Source of the DNA: Paraconexibacter algicola
GTDB taxonomy: Bacteria > Actinomycetota > Thermoleophilia > Solirubrobacterales > Solirubrobacteraceae
Assembly (NCBI RefSeq): GCF_003044185.1
Contig: NZ_PYYB01000001.1
Coordinates: forward strand, 1,488,001-1,552,000
Direction of reading: 5' to 3'
DNA length: 64,000 nt
Each line of letters opens with the position of its first letter. The stretch's first letter is position 1. Of the stretch, positions 2,746 through 26,665 are shown one piece after another. A program made the position numbers and the translations under genes. The notes below the pieces were generated by a model. The model did no database searches, was not told where the DNA came from, and saw nothing but the letters and a program-made list of their open reading frames with translations.

Positions 2746-4089
2746 GTGCTCGCCGACCTCCGTGCGCTCGTCGGGGACGATCACGTCGTCGCCTCCCCGG
2801 ACCCCGCGCTGCTCGCCGACGCCAGCGCCTACGCCGGGGTGACCGGCAGCGCCGCCGCGCTCGTGCGGCCCGGGTCCGCGCAGGAGGTCGCCGCGGTCGT
2901 GTCGTGGTGCGCGCAGCGCGGGGTGCCCGTGGTGCCGCGCGGGGGCGGTACGGGCTTCAGCGGCGGCTGCGTGCCGCAGGACCCGGCCTCCGTGGTGGTC
3001 GCGGTCGACCGGCTGGACGCGGTCCGGTCGCTGGACGTGCTGCAGTGGCGCGCGCACGTGGAGGCGGGGGTGACGACGGCGCGGCTCGCGCGGCTGGCGC
3101 GCGAGAACGGGCTGCGGTTCCCGGTCGACCCGGGCGCGGCCGAGCAGTCGCACATCGGCGGCAACATCGCGACGAACGCGGGGGGCCCGCACTGCTTCAA
3201 GCACGGCGTCACGCGCGCGTGGGTGCTCGGGGTGGAGGCGGTGCTCGGCAACGGCGAGCTCGTGACGGTCGGCGGGCCGACGCGCAAGGACGTCGCCGGC
3301 TACGACCTGGCGGGCCTGCTCTGCGGCAGCGAGGGCACGCTGGGGATCATCACCGCGGCCTGGATGCGGCTGATCCCGGCGCCGCCGGTCGAGATCGCGA
3401 TCGCGGCGGTGCTGCCGGACGCCCGCGCCGGGCAGGAGGCGCTCGACGCCGTGCTGGGCAGCGGCGTGGTCCCGGCCGTGGTCGAGTTCCTCGACGCGGG
3501 CGCGGTCGCCGCGGCGGCGGGGTCGTTCCCGGGCGGGGCGCTGTCGCCCGACGCGGGGTTCGTGCTGATCGTCGAGGTCGACACCTCGCCGCAGGACGCC
3601 GACGAGGTCGTCGCCGCCCTGCGGTCCGCCGGCGCGACGGTGTCGCAGCCGTCGCCGGGCGCGCTGTGGCGCTGGCGCGACGGCGTGTCGATCGCGGTGG
3701 CGGCGGTGCACGGCGGCAAGCTCTCCGAGGACATCGCGGTGCCGGTCGAGCGGCTCGCCGAGGCGGTCGAGCGCACGGTCGAGATCGGCGCCCGCCATGG
3801 GCTGCAGGCGTGCTCCTGGGGGCACGCGGGCGACGGCAACCTGCACTCGACCTTCCTGCTCGACCCGGCCGACGCGGCACAGCGCGCCCGCGCCGACGAC
3901 GCCGCGGCCGACCTCTTCGCGATGGCGCTCGAGCTCGGCGGCACCGTGTCCGGCGAGCACGGCCTGGGCCTGCTGAAGAACGGCTGGCTGTCGAAGCAGT
4001 GGTCCCCGGCCGCCGTCGCCGCCGCCGACGCGGTGCGCCGCGCCCTGGACCCGGCGGGGATCATGAACCCGGCCACCAAACGCCCCTGA
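2746..4089 (+). CDS. FAD-binding oxidoreductase, GlcD/D-lactate dehydrogenase type
   Basis: The 447-residue product has the PCMH FAD-binding signature PRGGGTGFSGG (about residues 64-74), the nucleotide segment HIGGNIATNAGG, and C-terminal FAD-oxidase motifs GHAGDGNLH (about 359-367) and SGEHGLGLLKNGWL. Length and domain order fit glycolate oxidase subunit GlcD or D-2-hydroxyacid dehydrogenases that oxidise 2-hydroxyacids to 2-oxoacids. No GlcE or GlcF partner is adjacent, which favours a single-subunit D-lactate or D-2-hydroxyacid dehydrogenase. A much longer open frame extends upstream across the glycosylase gene. I chose the GTG at 2746 because conserved sequence starts there and a TACGGT box ends 7 nt earlier. 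Confidence 0.9.
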   Translation: MLADLRALVGDDHVVASPDPALLADASAYAGVTGSAAALVRPGSAQEVAAVVSWCAQRGVPVVPRGGGTGFSGGCVPQDPASVVVAVDRLDAVRSLDVLQWRAHVEAGVTTARLARLARENGLRFPVDPGAAEQSHIGGNIATNAGGPHCFKHGVTRAWVLGVEAVLGNGELVTVGGPTRKDVAGYDLAGLLCGSEGTLGIITAAWMRLIPAPPVEIAIAAVLPDARAGQEALDAVLGSGVVPAVVEFLDAGAVAAAAGSFPGGALSPDAGFVLIVEVDTSPQDADEVVAALRSAGATVSQPSPGALWRWRDGVSIAVAAVHGGKLSEDIAVPVERLAEAVERTVEIGARHGLQACSWGHAGDGNLHSTFLLDPADAAQRARADDAAADLFAMALELGGTVSGEHGLGLLKNGWLSKQWSPAAVAAADAVRRALDPAGIMNPATKRP

Positions 4090-4101
4090 CCCCCCCTGTG
4101 C

Positions 4102-4154
4102 CGGCCGAACAGGGAGTCTGTCGGCGTGGAGCCGAACTTCTCCCTGTTCGGCCG
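4102..4154. terminator. 15-bp inverted repeat, probable terminator or REP-like hairpin
   Basis: CGGCCGAACAGGGAG pairs perfectly with CTCCCTGTTCGGCCG around a 23-nt loop that itself holds a TCGGC/GCCGA stem. It sits 12 nt after the oxidase stop, so termination is plausible, but there is no T-tract and the nested arms resemble the repeats at 7034 and 8851. Confidence 0.55.
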
Positions 4155-4177
4155 CGGGGAGCGGGGGGCGGGGGCGG

Positions 4178-4183
4178 TAGCGT
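4178..4183 (+). promoter_or_regulatory. -10 element of leaderless HMG-CoA reductase transcript
   Basis: TAGCGT ends 7 nt before the ATG at 4190, so the predicted first transcribed base is the start codon itself. This favours the ATG over the in-frame TTG at 4184. Confidence 0.45.
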
Positions 4184-4189
4184 TTGGGT

Positions 4190-5383
4190 ATGGCTGAGGG
4201 ACTTGGGCGTCCGGGGCGGGTGGCTGTGCCGCGCGACAGGGAGAACGACTACTCGCGCGAGGCCGCCGCGATGCGGCGGGAGTTCGCGCAGGAGCACACC
4301 GGGGCGGCGCTGGAGCACGTCGGCTCGTACTCGTTCGACCCCGCGGTCCTGGCCGGGAACATCGAGCACTTCGTCGGCGTCGCCCAGGTCCCGATCGGCC
4401 TCGCGGGACCGCTGCTCGTCAACGGCGAGCACGCGCAGGGGGAGTTCTACGTCCCGCTCGCGACCGCCGAGGGCACGCTCGTCGCCTCGTACAACCGCGG
4501 CATGCGGCTGCTGCACGAGGCCGGTGGCGTGACGGTCACGGTCATGGACGACCACATGCAGCGCGCCCCCTCGTTCATCTTCCCCAGCGCGCGCGAGGCG
4601 CGGGACTTCGACGGCTGGCTCGACGAGCACTTCGACGAGATCAAGGCCGCCGCGGAGACCACGACGTCGACCGGCAGGCTGCAGGAGATCGAGCGCTACT
4701 CCGCCGGCCGCATGCTCTACACGCGGTTCAACTACACGACCGGGGACGCGGCGGGCCAGAACCTCACAGGCAAGGCGACGCAGGAGGCGTGCCGCTGGAT
4801 CCGCGCGAACAACGACACGATCGAGCACCACTTCCTCGAGTCGAACTTCGCGACGGACAAGAAGTCCTCGACGGTGAACATGCTGCACACGCGCGGCAAG
4901 CGCGTGATCGCCGAGGCGACCGTCCCGAACGAGCTGTTCCAGCGCGTGATGCGCTCGGACTCGCGGCTCATGTACCGGGCCCGGCAGATCTCGAACCTCG
5001 GCGGCTTCATGGCCGGGGTCAACAACAACGGCGCGCACTCCGCCAACGGCATCACCGCGATGTTCATCGCGACCGGGCAGGACGCCGCGAACGTCGCCGA
5101 GTCCTCCGCCGCGTACGTGTACGCGGAGCTGCGCGACAACGGCGACTACTACTTCTCGATCACGATCCCGTCGCTGATCGTCGCGACCTACGGGGGCGGC
5201 ACCGGTCTGCCGACCCAGCGCGAGTGCCTGGAGCTCATGGACTGCTACGGCGCCGGCAAGGTCCGCAAGCTCACCGAGATCGTCGCCGCGACCGTCCTCT
5301 GCGGCGAGCTGTCGCTCGGCTCGGCGATCGTCGCGGAGGAGTGGGTCGACGCCCACGACGCCTACGGCCGCAACCGGCCGTAG
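4190..5383 (+). CDS. Hydroxymethylglutaryl-CoA reductase, soluble
   Basis: The 397-residue product lacks the membrane domain of eukaryotic enzymes and consists of the catalytic core only. Visible active-site elements are Glu95 in ATAEGTLVAS, Lys in FATDKKSSTVN (about 223-225), Asp298 in ATGQDAANVAES and His389 in the C-terminal WVDAHDAYGRNRP. The ENxIG-like segment GNIEHFVG and the substrate motif VPIGLAGPL are present. The DKK and GQD patterns resemble class I enzymes more than Pseudomonas mevalonii class II. It reduces HMG-CoA to mevalonate with NAD(P)H, the committed step of the mevalonate route. No other mevalonate gene lies in the window, so its link to isoprenoid or carotenoid synthesis is inferred. 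It appears monocistronic with its own promoter. Confidence 0.92.
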   Translation: MAEGLGRPGRVAVPRDRENDYSREAAAMRREFAQEHTGAALEHVGSYSFDPAVLAGNIEHFVGVAQVPIGLAGPLLVNGEHAQGEFYVPLATAEGTLVASYNRGMRLLHEAGGVTVTVMDDHMQRAPSFIFPSAREARDFDGWLDEHFDEIKAAAETTTSTGRLQEIERYSAGRMLYTRFNYTTGDAAGQNLTGKATQEACRWIRANNDTIEHHFLESNFATDKKSSTVNMLHTRGKRVIAEATVPNELFQRVMRSDSRLMYRARQISNLGGFMAGVNNNGAHSANGITAMFIATGQDAANVAESSAAYVYAELRDNGDYYFSITIPSLIVATYGGGTGLPTQRECLELMDCYGAGKVRKLTEIVAATVLCGELSLGSAIVAEEWVDAHDAYGRNRP

Positions 5384-5403
5384 CCCGCACCGCGTGCGCG
5401 GGT

Positions 5404-5423
5404 GCGCCCGGACCGGTGGGCGC
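5404..5423. terminator. Candidate bidirectional terminator hairpin
   Basis: GCGCCC pairs with GGGCGC across an 8-nt loop in the 53-bp gap between convergent genes ending at 5383 and 5437; a second imperfect GC hairpin precedes it. There is no T-tract. Confidence 0.35.
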
Positions 5424-5436
5424 TCGCGCAGCGGGC

Positions 5437-6411
5437 TCAGTCGCCCGCGGCGACGCGGACCCGCTGCGCGGTCCCGAGCGCACGCACGGCCTCGGGCCGC
5501 AGGGTGGCGGCGACCGGCGCGTAGCCCGGCCGCGGCCGCGCGGGCGCGGGCGCGGGCCGGACCGGCCGGGCGGCGAGGGCGACGCCGGCGACGACGGTTC
5601 CGAGCCCGAGGACCGCGGCGACGGTCAGCGGCTCACCCGCGGCGACGACGGCGGCCACGAGCGCCACCACCGGGGTGAGGTAGATGACGAGCAGCCCGCG
5701 GGCCGCGCCGACGCGGCGGACGAGCGTCACCAGCAGCACCACCGCGACGCCGAGGGTCAGCGTCCCCAGGAGCAACGTGCCGCCGATCGCGGTCGCGGGC
5801 ACGCCGCCGAGCGGCAGCAGCGCGAGCGCGACGAGCGCGACGGGGAGCGCGGGCAGCGTCGTGAGGCCGGCGGTGACGAGCACGGGCGTGTCGGCGAAGT
5901 GCCGGCGCATCGTGACCGCGGCGACCGCGTAGCAGGCACCAGCGGCGAGGAAGGCCCCGGCGCCGGCCGCCGAGCCGACGTGCGCGCCCGCGCCGACGAG
6001 CACGACCCCGGCGAGCGCGAGGCCCATCCCGGCGAGCTGCGCGGTGCCGAGCGGGGTGCGGTCGCCGGTCGCGCGGGCGAGCATCGCCGCGAGGATCGGG
6101 GAGGGCGCCACGAGGATCGCCGCCGCGCCGGTCTGCACGCTGCCGACCGCGAGGGCGATGAGCGTCAGCGGGACGACGGTCTGCGACAGCGCGAGGAGGG
6201 CGACCGGTCCCGGGGCGCGCCGCGCGAGCGCGAGCATCGGGCGCAGCGCCCGGCCGGCGACTAGCGCGACGAGCAGGAACAGCCCGGCACCCAGCACCTG
6301 CAGCACGACCACGGCGATCGGCGGGAGCGCACCGAGCGCCCACTGGGTCGGCAGATAGGAGCAGCCGCGCAGCAGCGCGATGACGGCGAGCAGGGCCCAC
6401 GGGGACGGCAT
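5437..6411 (-). CDS. EamA/DMT-superfamily transporter
   Basis: The 324-residue protein is almost entirely hydrophobic. It has about ten predicted transmembrane stretches in two repeated halves, as in the drug/metabolite transporter superfamily (for example AGLFLLVALVAGRAL and VALVAAVVAAGEPLTVAAV). The APSPILAAMLA segment and the second-half GEPLT match the EamA pattern. The C-terminal 45 residues form a Pro/Arg-rich hydrophilic tail. Likely role: export of a small metabolite or amino acid from the cytoplasm. It is divergent from an Lrp/AsnC regulator across a 112-bp gap, the usual arrangement of Lrp-controlled amino-acid exporters, so control by that neighbour is likely. The cargo cannot be read from sequence. 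Confidence 0.88.
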   Translation of the reverse strand: MPSPWALLAVIALLRGCSYLPTQWALGALPPIAVVVLQVLGAGLFLLVALVAGRALRPMLALARRAPGPVALLALSQTVVPLTLIALAVGSVQTGAAAILVAPSPILAAMLARATGDRTPLGTAQLAGMGLALAGVVLVGAGAHVGSAAGAGAFLAAGACYAVAAVTMRRHFADTPVLVTAGLTTLPALPVALVALALLPLGGVPATAIGGTLLLGTLTLGVAVVLLVTLVRRVGAARGLLVIYLTPVVALVAAVVAAGEPLTVAAVLGLGTVVAGVALAARPVRPAPAPARPRPGYAPVAATLRPEAVRALGTAQRVRVAAGD

Positions 6412-22632: not shown

Positions 22633-24687
22633 TCAGCGCAGACGCGCCACGGCCTGCGCGACGGCCCGCCGCGCCTCGGCGGGCTCGAGGACCGCGGCGT
22701 CCCCGGCCTCCTGCAGGACCGTCCGGACCAGGTAGTCCGTGCCCTTGTAGGGCCATTCGACGACGATCGCCCCGTCGGCGAGCTCCTCGGCGACCGGGCG
22801 CTCCTCGCGCAGCCACCGGGCCCGCTCGGGCGAGACCCACAGGCGCGCGGTGTGCGACGCCTCGACCTCGCCGGTGGTCAGCCATCCGTCCACGGCGGCG
22901 GCCGCGTCGACCTCCGGCCGGGGCACGAAGGTCTGCTCGAGGACCTCGACCTCCTTGATGCGGTCCAGGCGGAAGTGGCGGACGTCGTCCTTGTTCGGGT
23001 CGAACGTCGCGACGTACCAGCCCTCGCGGCCGTTGGTCAGCGCGTAGGGCTCGAGCGTCCGCTCGCTGAACTCGTCCTCGTTGCTCTTGTAGTAGACGAT
23101 CCGCACGAGCCGGTGGGCGACGATCGCCTCGGACATCGTGCGGGCGATGTCCGCGTCGTCGGCGCCGCTGCGGGCGACCTGCAGGCCCTGCTCCATCGGG
23201 TCGTGCCCGAGCGCCTCGACGATCTTCTGCCGCGCGGGGGTCAGGGCGCCCTCGGGCAGGTGGTCGCCGATCAGGTCGATCGCGGCGATCAGCGCCTTCG
23301 CCTCCACCGGCAGCAGCCGGGCGGGGCGGTCGAAGTTGTCGGAGTAGGGCTCCGGGTCGACCTCGATCGTGCCGTCGGCCAGCACCTCGGCGTAGAGGAC
23401 GTAGGAGCCGCCCCCGAAGTTCACGACGTTCAGGACGTTGATGTCCTCGGCCAGCTCCTGCTCGGAGATCTGCAGGCGCTCGAGCACGTCGGCGACGACG
23501 AGCCGCTCCCCGGCCCGACCGGCGTGGATGAGGATGCTGGCGAGCGTGACGAGCCGCGCGAACCGCTCCGGGCGGATCGCGGTCTCGCGCCGCGCGGACC
23601 CGGTGTCGGCCTCGACGGCGGCCCCGGCGGCGCCGTTGCCGAGCACCACGGGCGCGTGCTCGAGGGCGTCGCCGTCGTGGCGGCGGGCGAGCAGCTCGAT
23701 GCGCTCGTCGATGACGTCGCGCAGCGCGGGGGGACCGAGCACGCGGGCGTGCTCGCCGAGGCGCAGCACCCAGGCCGCGAGCTGGCGGTCCGACGCGTAG
23801 GGGGTCGAGAAGACGATCGCGCCGTCGCCCTCGTCGGCGGGGCGGACCTCGCCGAAGCGGCCGAAGTGCCGCTCGACCTGCCAGGCGATCCGTCCGCCGA
23901 TCCACACCTCGGCCGTGTCGACGACGTCCCCGTACTGCCACTCCGCGCGGTTGGAGTACGTGCGCGGGTCGAAGTCCGCGGGCTTCTTGAAGTCGTGCTC
24001 GGCCTTCGTCGCGTAGGCGACCTTGCCGCGGATCCGCGAGAGCCGGAACACGCGCAGCGCGCCGCGCTCGTGGCTGTGGCCGAGCAGGTAGAACTGGCCG
24101 CCCTGGAACAGCAGGTGGTACGGGTCGACCTTCCGGGCGCCCGTCTCGTCGCGGGCCATCGTGTAGTAGTCGAAGGTGATCGTCTTGTTGCGGAAGATCG
24201 CGGTCTCGACCTTCGCGAGGCGCTGCGACAGCTCGTGGCCGCCGGCGTTGCCGCGGACCCCGAGCGCGAGGCCCGCCTGGTCGGGGGTCTGCAGCGGGCT
24301 CGGCCGGCCCCAGGTGATCTGCTGGAGCGCCAGACGCAGCGGCTCCGCGTAGGCGAACTCGCCGTCCAGGAGGCTCAGCGCGGTCTGCAGCGACGCGAGC
24401 TCCTCGTCGGAGAAGGCGATCGGCGGCAGGTGGAAGTTCTCGGGTCGCAGCGAGTAGTTCTCCTGCTCGGCGACGCCGTCGACGGGCTTCTCGACGGTCA
24501 GCTGGATGCCGAGGGACTCGAGCTCGGCGCGGTCCGCGTAGAACCGCCGCGCGAACGCGTCCTCGTTCATGCCGCTGTAGCCCTCGACGTCCCTGCGGAT
24601 CTCCAGCGCCGTCACCGGACGGCGCTCAGCCATGAGGTACGAGATCAGGGAGAGCTGGCGAATCAGCTTCTCGGTGTCCTTCGCCAT
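22633..24687 (-). CDS. pafBC: PafBC-type fused WYL transcriptional regulator
   Basis: The 684-residue product is two HTH-WYL units in tandem. The first has an N-terminal winged helix (EKLIRQLSLISYLMAERRPV) and a WYL-like segment (DPYHLLFQGGQFYLLGHSHE). The second has ERFARLVTLASILIHAGRAG, LQISEQELAEDINVLNVV and a second WYL core (EPYALTNGREGWYVATFDPN). Mycobacteria carry PafB and PafC as separate, co-acting proteins of about 320-330 residues. This length and order fit a natural PafB-PafC fusion. PafBC senses single-stranded DNA and activates the LexA-independent DNA-damage regulon. It is not next to proteasome genes here. TAAGGT at 24702-24697 lies 9 nt before the ATG. Confidence 0.9.
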   Translation of the reverse strand: MAKDTEKLIRQLSLISYLMAERRPVTALEIRRDVEGYSGMNEDAFARRFYADRAELESLGIQLTVEKPVDGVAEQENYSLRPENFHLPPIAFSDEELASLQTALSLLDGEFAYAEPLRLALQQITWGRPSPLQTPDQAGLALGVRGNAGGHELSQRLAKVETAIFRNKTITFDYYTMARDETGARKVDPYHLLFQGGQFYLLGHSHERGALRVFRLSRIRGKVAYATKAEHDFKKPADFDPRTYSNRAEWQYGDVVDTAEVWIGGRIAWQVERHFGRFGEVRPADEGDGAIVFSTPYASDRQLAAWVLRLGEHARVLGPPALRDVIDERIELLARRHDGDALEHAPVVLGNGAAGAAVEADTGSARRETAIRPERFARLVTLASILIHAGRAGERLVVADVLERLQISEQELAEDINVLNVVNFGGGSYVLYAEVLADGTIEVDPEPYSDNFDRPARLLPVEAKALIAAIDLIGDHLPEGALTPARQKIVEALGHDPMEQGLQVARSGADDADIARTMSEAIVAHRLVRIVYYKSNEDEFSERTLEPYALTNGREGWYVATFDPNKDDVRHFRLDRIKEVEVLEQTFVPRPEVDAAAAVDGWLTTGEVEASHTARLWVSPERARWLREERPVAEELADGAIVVEWPYKGTDYLVRTVLQEAGDAAVLEPAEARRAVAQAVARLR

Positions 24688-24838: not shown

Positions 24839-25474
24839 ATGACCAAGCTCGTAATCGTCGACGACCACGAAGCGCTGCGGGAGGGCCTGGCCGCGCTGCT
24901 GTCCGGGAGCGGCCTGGAGATCGTCGGGGCGGCCGGCAACGTCGCCGCCGGCCTGGATCTCGTCGAGCACACCGGGCCGGACGTCGCGCTGCTCGACATC
25001 CGCCTGCCGGACGGCAGCGGGATCGCGCTGACGCGCGAGCTGCTCGCCCTGCATCCCGATCTCGGCGTCGTCCTCTACACGGGGGACAGCGACGCGGAGC
25101 TCCTCTACGACGGCCTCGACTCGGGCGCGCGCGGCTACGCGCTCAAGGCGGGCTCGATGGACGAGCTCGTGTCCGCGATCGAGCGCGTCGCCGCCGGCGG
25201 CACGTACGTCGACCCGCGCCTGGACCGGATCCTGCTGTCGCCGCGCGCCACCGCCAACGTGCCGCAGCTCTCGCCGCGCGAGCGGGAGATCATGCACCTG
25301 ATGGCCGAGGGCATGACGGCGGAGCGGATCGGCGAGGAGATCACCGTCAGCGTGGAGACCGTCCGCACCCATGTGCGCAACGTCATCCGCAAGCTGCAGG
25401 CGCGCAACCGCGTGCATGCGATCGCGATCGCGCTGGAGCGCGGCGAGATCGCGCTCGACCACTCCGAGGACTGA
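24839..25474 (+). CDS. NarL/FixJ-type (LuxR) response regulator
   Basis: The 211-residue product has a receiver domain with acidic pocket DDHEAL (9-14), phospho-acceptor Asp in DVALLDIRLPDGSG (about 55), conserved Thr and Lys (VLYTGDSD, YALKAGS), and a C-terminal LuxR HTH (LSPREREIMHLMAEGMTAER, about 145-205). The ATG at 24839 has a GGGAGAG ribosome-binding site; the upstream GTG frame lacks one. Only 2 bp separate it from a 65-residue stand-alone HisKA gene, so the pair is one operon without an obvious full histidine kinase. It should bind DNA as a phosphorylated dimer. Confidence 0.95.
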   Translation: MTKLVIVDDHEALREGLAALLSGSGLEIVGAAGNVAAGLDLVEHTGPDVALLDIRLPDGSGIALTRELLALHPDLGVVLYTGDSDAELLYDGLDSGARGYALKAGSMDELVSAIERVAAGGTYVDPRLDRILLSPRATANVPQLSPREREIMHLMAEGMTAERIGEEITVSVETVRTHVRNVIRKLQARNRVHAIAIALERGEIALDHSED

Positions 25475-25476
25475 CC

Positions 25477-25674
25477 GTGGACGACGCCGAGGAGCGGCTC
25501 GCCCGGCTCGTGCACGACGTCCGCACGCCGCTGACGATCGTGCTCGGCTTCAGCGACATGCTGCGCCGCCGCGGCGAGGACCTCGAGCCCGAGCAGCGGG
25601 CCGAGTTCGTGCAGCGCCTCGACGAGGCCGCGCGCGACATCCAGCGGCTGCTGGACGAGGCGCGCCCGACCTGA
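25477..25674 (+). CDS. Stand-alone HisKA (DHp) mini-protein, no ATPase domain
   Basis: A GTG at 25477 opens a 65-residue frame: VDDAEERLARLVHDVRTPLT, then IVLGFSDMLRRRGEDL, then FVQRLDEAARDIQRLLDEAR. This is the HisKA dimerisation/phospho-acceptor helix pair, with the H-box H-D-V-R-T-P, but translation stops before any N, G1 or G2 box. The frame is helical throughout and ends cleanly 5 bp before the convergent gene. It follows the response-regulator stop by 2 bp. Possible roles are phosphotransfer to the neighbour, a dimerisation partner for another kinase, or phosphatase-like control. A decayed kinase is the alternative, though no kinase remnant follows. Confidence 0.75.
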   Translation: MDDAEERLARLVHDVRTPLTIVLGFSDMLRRRGEDLEPEQRAEFVQRLDEAARDIQRLLDEARPT

Positions 25675-25678
25675 CGGG

Positions 25679-26665
25679 TCAGGCCGCGTCGCGCGCCGCG
25701 CCGGCCGGATCGGTCCGGGCGGGTCGCGCGCCGAAGTACGCGCTGCCGCTGATCGCCCGGTCGTAGCCCGACCAGGAGGCGCCGGGTGCGAGCTCCTTCT
25801 CGAGCCGGTCGAACGAGCCGAGACGGCCGCCGAGGTTGTCGATCATGTGGACGAGCGTCGCCTCGCGCGTGACCGGCACGACGGGGCTGCCGTGCTCGAG
25901 CGTGCCGTGGTGGCTGAGGATGATGTGGAGGATCGCGTCCGCCGTCGCCTGCGGGAAGCCGGGCAGGTCCTCGATCAGCCGCCGGACGCGGTAGTAGCCC
26001 ATCGGGATCTCGCCCTGCAGGCGCCCGAGGTCGGTCATGTCGGGGGCGGCGGGCTCGCGCGTGTACGCGTCGAGCTTGCCGATGTCGTGCAGCAGCGCGC
26101 CGGTGACCGCGACGTCGCGGTCGATGCCCGGGAACGTCGCACTGATCGCGCCGACCGCCTGGGCGACCGTCAGCGAGTGCTCGAGCAGGCCGTGCGTGTA
26201 GGCCTGGTGGTAGCGCTTGGCCGCCGGGGCGACGGAGAAGTGCTCCCACGTCGCGGTGTCCGCGCCGAAGACCGCGTCGAGCAGCCGGCCGAGGTGCGGG
26301 TCCTGGACGGTGGCGATCAGCTCGCGCAGGTCGGCCTCCATCCGCGCGAACGGCTGCGGCGGACCGTCCTGCAGCGCGGCGGCGTCGTAGTCGCCCTCGG
26401 CGACCGGGACCCACTGGGCGACCTCGAGCTGGCGGCCGTAGCGGGCGTCGTCCACGAGCTCCCCGACCACCCGCACCGCGATCCCGGGGGCGAGCGCGGC
26501 GCCGAGCTCGTCGAGGTCCTCGCGCACGATCGCGGTGACCGCCCCGCTGCGGTCGCCGACGGTCACGCGCAGGTACGGGCTCCCGTCCTTGCGGGTGCGG
26601 GGCTCGGCCCGACGCACCAGCAGCACCTCGTCGATCGGGCCGGGCTCGAGATCGCGCAGCAGCAT
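25679..26665 (-). CDS. YhaM-type 3'-5' exoribonuclease (OB-fold plus HD domain)
   Basis: The 328-residue product has an N-terminal OB-fold (YLRVTVGDRSGAVTAIVRED, VRVVGELVDDARYGRQLEV, about 20-90). A metal-dependent HD domain follows, with HGLLEHSLTV, ALLHDIGKLDAY and IILSHHGTLEHGSP (about 160-260). This order matches YhaM/CBF1-like 3'-5' exoribonucleases that trim short RNA or ssDNA. ACGGTA at 26674-26679 (TACCGT on the minus strand) ends 9 nt before the ATG, suggesting a near-leaderless mRNA. It is convergent with the HisKA gene with a 4-bp gap. Confidence 0.92.
   Translation of the reverse strand: MLLRDLEPGPIDEVLLVRRAEPRTRKDGSPYLRVTVGDRSGAVTAIVREDLDELGAALAPGIAVRVVGELVDDARYGRQLEVAQWVPVAEGDYDAAALQDGPPQPFARMEADLRELIATVQDPHLGRLLDAVFGADTATWEHFSVAPAAKRYHQAYTHGLLEHSLTVAQAVGAISATFPGIDRDVAVTGALLHDIGKLDAYTREPAAPDMTDLGRLQGEIPMGYYRVRRLIEDLPGFPQATADAILHIILSHHGTLEHGSPVVPVTREATLVHMIDNLGGRLGSFDRLEKELAPGASWSGYDRAISGSAYFGARPARTDPAGAARDAA

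What the first reader, a model, noticed from the sequence alone, without database searches (positions are those of the whole stretch)
25477..25674. 65-residue stand-alone HisKA (DHp) protein in operon with a response regulator
A short gene directly after a NarL-type regulator encodes only the phospho-acceptor helix pair with intact H-D-V-R-T-P and no ATPase, sensor or linker. Such a solo DHp could act as a phosphotransfer hub, a phosphatase or a dominant dimerisation partner. Automated annotation easily misses it because the frame lies inside a larger spurious one.
Basis: partly seen in the sequence, partly recalled or inferred. Interest (0 to 1): 0.6.

Follow-up and report, generated by a model that had tools for sequence, protein, structure and literature searches.

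The report
Conserved stand-alone kinase dimerization-domain protein
A tiny 65-residue gene behind a bacterial gene regulator encodes only the phosphate-accepting part of a sensor kinase, and relatives in 25 genomes keep it intact in the same place, so it is a real gene that most likely handles the regulator's phosphate without being able to use ATP itself.

Summary
Window 25477-25674 (+) encodes a 65-aa protein that is a complete HisKA (DHp) helical hairpin and nothing else. It starts 2 nt behind a NarL-type response regulator (RR) and ends 4 nt before a convergent gene, leaving no room for a lost ATPase domain. No ortholog was found without that RR, although five RR orthologs lack the DHp. 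None was found outside the family in class and phylum samples. In its own genome every other credible HisKA match has an ATPase domain behind it, and none of 60 HATPase_c hits is a free kinase ATPase. The phospho-acceptor His, its acidic neighbour and the phosphatase Thr are kept. Best explanation: a dedicated DHp-only partner that dephosphorylates, or exchanges phosphate with, the RR. Phosphorylation in trans by a full kinase, or heterodimerisation with one, remain open. HisKA proteins without HATPase are a known minor class, so this is a new variant of a known kind.

The parts
25477..25674 (+). stand-alone DHp (HisKA) protein, 65 aa; phospho-acceptor His is residue 13 (codon 25513-25515); Asp14 and Thr17 complete the H-D-x-x-T motif
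   Evidence: Pfam HisKA 1.1e-11; same place behind the RR in 25 genomes; dN/dS 0.08-0.35 in the closest pairs; AF2 hairpin pLDDT 95.6; Foldseek top hits HK853 and EnvZ
24839..25474 (+). NarL-type response regulator (REC + LuxR HTH), 211 aa, directly upstream; phospho-acceptor Asp53
   Evidence: Pfam Response_reg 4.7e-22, GerE 1e-17; D9, D53, T81 and K103 invariant in 28 aligned orthologs
22633..24687 (-). divergent neighbour: fused PafB-PafC-like WYL regulator (684 aa); conserved neighbour, not shown to be part of the system
   Evidence: Pfam WYL x2, WCX x2; HTH_PafC at 29.5 bits is slightly under its 32-bit cut-off; divergently next to the RR in all 16 ortholog regions examined, with or without the DHp
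25679..26665 (-). convergent neighbour: HD-domain protein; its stop lies 4 nt from the DHp stop, leaving no room for an ATPase domain
   Evidence: Pfam HD 6.3e-12; found beyond the DHp or RR in most ortholog regions, not in genus g12

Best explanation
The gene encodes a genuine, ATPase-free DHp protein dedicated to the adjacent NarL-type response regulator. Inferred mechanism: two copies form the usual DHp four-helix bundle and the regulator's REC domain docks on helix 1. The bundle then removes phosphate from Asp53 (His13/Thr17-assisted hydrolysis) and/or takes phosphate back onto His13 and returns it, which sets how long the regulator stays active. Shown: the gene, the predicted hairpin fold, the conserved residues, the operon-like arrangement and the purifying selection. 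Inferred: the dimer, the physical partnership with the RR, and the direction of phosphate flow. The source of the phosphate on the RR is unknown; full kinases elsewhere or small phosphodonors are candidates.
For: 25 genomes carry it immediately behind the orthologous RR, mostly with overlapping stop and start codons (-4 nt is commonest; +2 nt here), and none is found without that RR. His is kept in 25/25, D/E in 25/25, T in 23/25 and S in 2/25; dN/dS is 0.08-0.35 in the closest pairs. The RR keeps its phosphorylation residues in all 28 aligned orthologs. All 60 HATPase_c hits of the genome lie in whole kinases, CheA, GyrB or RsbW-like proteins; 17 of 18 credible HisKA matches have HATPase_c 142-214 nt downstream, and the exception is this gene. 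Literature: the DHp domain of EnvZ or NtrB alone is sufficient for phosphatase activity and gives a constitutive phosphatase phenotype in vivo (PMC3510030); an isolated HK853 DHp is a homodimer that binds its RR 1:1 and has phosphatase activity (PMC5727384).
Against: The acidic residue next to His, reported as needed for kinase but not phosphatase activity (PMC3510030), is also kept in 25/25, which hints at phosphorylation by an ATPase domain in trans. Thr is Ser in two orthologs of genus g3. There is no biochemical evidence, and neither dimerisation nor RR binding was modelled. Three g10 genomes and two g11 genomes keep the RR without the DHp, so the RR can work without it.
Confidence: 0.45

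Rival explanations
1. Split kinase or phosphorelay intermediate: a full histidine kinase elsewhere in the cell phosphorylates His13 in trans and the DHp passes the phosphate to the RR.
For: His and the kinase-specific acidic neighbour are both kept in 25/25. PMC3591291 notes that EnvZ can be split into HisKA and HATPase polypeptides with activity retained. The genome has at least 17 full HisKA kinases that could donate.
Against: No free HATPase_c of the histidine-kinase type was found, and no kinase is encoded beside the RR-DHp pair.
Confidence: 0.27
2. Heterodimerisation partner: the solo hairpin pairs with the DHp of a full kinase and inhibits or redirects it, comparable in principle to RetS acting on GacS.
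For: The DHp is a dimerisation unit; RetS-GacS heterodimerisation down-regulates GacS (PMC12189002).
Against: It is tied to an RR and not to a kinase; the best full-length relatives in the same genome are only about 35-37% identical over the domain. Invariance of His and near-invariance of Thr are not needed for a pure dimer poison.
Confidence: 0.15
3. Non-functional remnant of a kinase that lost its ATPase and sensor domains.
For: It is absent in some lineages that keep the RR. A paralogous RR in two genomes (L147, L148) has a compact full HisKA kinase encoded divergently, so an ancestral full kinase is plausible.
Against: 25 genomes in eight genera keep an intact frame, motif and length (52-64 aa from motif to stop in the 24 complete ones), with dN/dS well below 1 in close pairs and no ATPase remnant behind it.
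Confidence: 0.05

Closest known systems
HisKA-family DHp domain of bifunctional histidine kinases (EnvZ, HK853)
   Same: Pfam HisKA above cut-off; same hairpin, TM-score 0.81-0.89 to the DHp of HK853 and EnvZ among the best hits; same H-E/D-x-x-T/N motif
   Different: No CA/ATPase, sensor, HAMP or linker; the whole protein is about 63-85 aa in the orthologs; paired with a NarL-type RR, whereas such RRs usually go with HisKA_3 kinases (general knowledge)
Isolated DHp constructs of EnvZ and NtrB
   Same: A DHp alone; these fragments dephosphorylate their RR (as reported in PMC3510030)
   Different: Those are laboratory fragments; this is a natural conserved gene
Split histidine kinases (CheA3/CheA4; HisKA proteins without HATPase counted in PMC3591291; M. 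tuberculosis Rv0600c/Rv0601c with TcrA, domain split from general knowledge)
   Same: Phospho-acceptor domain on a polypeptide without its own ATPase; PMC3591291 counts 1556 of 42417 HisKA proteins without HATPase, 711 of them with the phosphatase motif
   Different: No separate kinase ATPase protein nearby or elsewhere in the genome
Dimeric histidine phosphotransferases Spo0B and ChpT
   Same: Four-helix bundle made from the hairpins of two subunits, carrying phosphate between proteins (PMC3433190)
   Different: ChpT has an atypical ATPase-like C-terminal domain, and Spo0B has a C-terminal domain too (general knowledge); this protein has none and keeps a canonical HisKA motif

Membership tests
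HisKA (PF00512) DHp domain | Profile match above the curated cut-off with the phospho-acceptor H-box | tested here: met
   45.1 bits against 26.9; H13 D14 R16 T17 P18; His 25/25
HisKA (PF00512) DHp domain | Two-helix hairpin fold | tested here: met
   AF2 helices 2-35 and 38-62, pLDDT 95.6; Foldseek best hits HK853 and EnvZ, although with weak E-values (0.02 or more) as expected for a short helical protein
HisKA (PF00512) DHp domain | Homodimeric four-helix bundle | not tested
   Only the monomer was predicted
Histidine kinase | CA (HATPase_c) domain on the same protein | tested here: not met
   Stop 54 aa after the motif start and 4 nt to the next gene; none in the other 24 genomes
Split histidine kinase | A separate HATPase_c protein as partner | tested here: not met
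   All 60 HATPase_c hits of the genome lie in whole kinases, CheA, GyrB or RsbW-like proteins; the assembly is 95.6% complete, so this is not absolute
HisKA-type RR phosphatase (works like) | H-E/D-x-x-T/N motif | tested here: met
   HDVRT here; T in 23/25 and S in 2/25
HisKA-type RR phosphatase (works like) | Dephosphorylation of the partner RR | not testable with these tools
   Needs a biochemical assay

The most novel reading that the evidence does not exclude
A naturally evolved minimal two-component partner: a sensorless, ATPase-free DHp of about 65 aa that takes the place of the cognate kinase in the operon and acts as a dedicated phosphatase or phosphate buffer for one response regulator, kept in one bacterial family beside a PafBC-like regulator gene.
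Probability: 0.4. Interest if true: 0.65.

Novelty: new variant of a known kind. Interest (0 to 1): 0.45.

Why it matters
Bare DHp domains have been studied mainly as laboratory fragments of kinases. A conserved natural gene of that form, tied to one regulator, makes it directly testable whether cells use a bare DHp as a phosphatase, a phosphate store or a phosphotransfer step. It also shows that very short signalling genes hidden inside spurious high-GC frames can be real and under selection.

Tried and rejected
Truncated or frameshifted kinase: rejected; 4 nt to the next gene here and no CA domain behind any ortholog. Separate kinase ATPase in the genome: all 60 PF02518 hits were read and none is a free kinase ATPase; the small stand-alone ones (e.g. 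C1:1739469, C1:215324) are RsbW-like. Solo relatives outside the family: the weaker class and phylum hits that were fetched are full kinases, one of them (L222) cut by its contig end. The next-best hits within the family (G009:C82, G161:C49) are longer kinase-type proteins. HisKA hits beside paralogous RRs in G035 and G066 are compact full kinases. The overall median dN/dS of 0.77 is uninformative because synonymous sites are saturated between distant genomes; only close pairs were used. NCBIfam has no model above cut-off. The original EnvZ paper (PMC16626) was not held, so its result is cited through PMC3510030.

Full report
What is there. The ORF at 25477-25674 (+), with a GTG start, encodes 65 aa. 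It begins 2 nt behind the TGA of a 211-aa NarL-type response regulator (24839-25474), with GAGG 7 nt upstream of its start. It ends 4 nt before the stop of a convergent HD-domain gene (25679-26665, -). Pfam HisKA matches residues 8-61 at 1.1e-11. AlphaFold2 predicts a two-helix hairpin (2-35 and 38-62; pLDDT 95.6). Foldseek ranks HK853 and EnvZ structures first, with TM-scores of 0.81-0.89 over the hairpin for most of the top ten; E-values are weak (0.02 or more), as expected for so short a helical protein. A profile search of solved chains likewise gives an HK853 variant first, and second a 60-residue histidine-kinase chain, 7n0e_A.

Is it conserved? Searches of 61 relatives found it immediately downstream of the RR ortholog in many of them. 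With a 14-sequence profile across the 146 genomes held for the family, 25 genomes have a match of 76.8-120.8 bits and everything else lies at or below 52.2 bits. The RR ortholog (E below 1e-50) occurs in 32 of the 146 genomes. All 25 DHp genomes are among these 32, with adjacent coordinates on the same strand. One more (G002) shows the first part of the DHp before its contig ends. Named carriers come from Solirubrobacterales, including Paraconexibacter antarcticus 02-257. In the 24 complete copies the stop comes 52-64 aa after the motif; the copy in G010 runs off its contig. None is followed in frame by an ATPase domain. The start codon overlaps the RR stop by 4 nt in many and ranges from -20 to +9 nt, which suggests translational coupling.

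Selection. Among the closest genome pairs dN/dS is 0.08-0.35. For example, G035-G066 gives 0.08 with codon-position differences of 5, 0 and 20, and G162-G160 gives 0.10 with 2, 1 and 20. More distant pairs are saturated at synonymous sites and were not used. The phospho-acceptor His is invariant, its neighbour is Asp (24) or Glu (1), Arg at +3 is invariant, and the +4 residue is Thr (23) or Ser (2). The RR keeps D9, D53, T81 and K103 in all 28 aligned orthologs.

Absence and history. Five RR orthologs have no DHp behind them: G036, G016 and G166 (genus g10), and G073 and G074 (genus g11). One more, G001, cannot be judged because its contig ends. An RR tree with paralogous RRs as outgroup needs about three label changes. 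Carriers include the deep genus g12 and most of the rest, so the simplest reading is an ancestral DHp lost in g10 and within g11; many inner branches are weak, so this is inference. The divergent WYL gene (a PafB-PafC-like fusion) flanks the RR in all 16 ortholog regions examined, with or without the DHp. Samples of 399 class and 396 phylum genomes showed no ortholog outside the family; the weaker hits that were fetched are full-length kinases, apart from one cut by its contig end.

Is there an ATPase partner? In the window's own genome 19 places match the DHp query. One is a chance match in an unrelated protein (C2:549530). Of the other 18, 17 have HATPase_c on the same strand 142-214 nt downstream; the only one without is this gene. 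All 60 HATPase_c hits were read. They lie in HisKA, HisKA_2-like, HisKA_3-like or LytS-like kinases, CheA, GyrB, or RsbW-like regulators. A classical split kinase with a free ATPase subunit is therefore not supported, within the limits of a 95.6%-complete assembly.

Mechanism. From the literature: the DHp domain of EnvZ or NtrB is sufficient for phosphatase activity and its expression gives a constitutive phosphatase phenotype; in CrdS the acidic residue next to His is needed only for kinase activity and the Thr/Asn only for phosphatase activity (PMC3510030). The HK853 DHp is a homodimer that binds its RR at an equal molar ratio and has phosphatase activity (PMC5727384). Free CheA3 is the main phosphatase in a split system, and 1556 of 42417 HisKA proteins in SMART lack HATPase, 711 of them with the phosphatase motif (PMC3591291). 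On this basis the most likely role is a dedicated RR phosphatase or phosphate exchanger (0.45). Conservation of the acidic residue keeps phosphorylation in trans by a full kinase a serious rival (0.27). Heterodimerisation with a full kinase, with RetS-GacS as precedent (PMC12189002), is less likely because the gene is tied to an RR and not to a kinase (0.15). A non-functional remnant is unlikely (0.05).

Verdict. Membership in the HisKA DHp domain family is met; membership in histidine kinases is not. HisKA proteins without HATPase are known as a minor class, but I found no description of this conserved, RR-coupled, minimal form in the papers searched. It is rated a new variant of a known kind.

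Noticed in passing
window 22633-24687 (-): A fused PafB-PafC-like WYL regulator stands divergently next to the RR in all 16 ortholog regions examined, even where the DHp is missing. In mycobacteria PafBC controls a DNA-damage response (e.g. PMC5656591), so the RR may belong to a stress circuit.
   Followed up: partly
L147 (about 4100-5629), L148 (about 3900-5613): Paralogous RRs (43-46% identical) in G035 and G066 stand beside a divergently encoded compact full HisKA kinase of roughly 210-230 aa, a possible picture of the ancestral arrangement.
   Followed up: partly
L140, L141, L151 (genus g10); L149, L150 (two g11 genomes): The RR and WYL genes are kept but the DHp gene is absent, a natural contrast set for its function.
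   Followed up: partly
window 25679-26665 (-): HD-domain protein with a weak OB-fold match at its N-terminus (possibly a YhaM-type exonuclease, from general knowledge) lies convergent to the RR-DHp pair in most orthologs outside genus g12.
   Followed up: no
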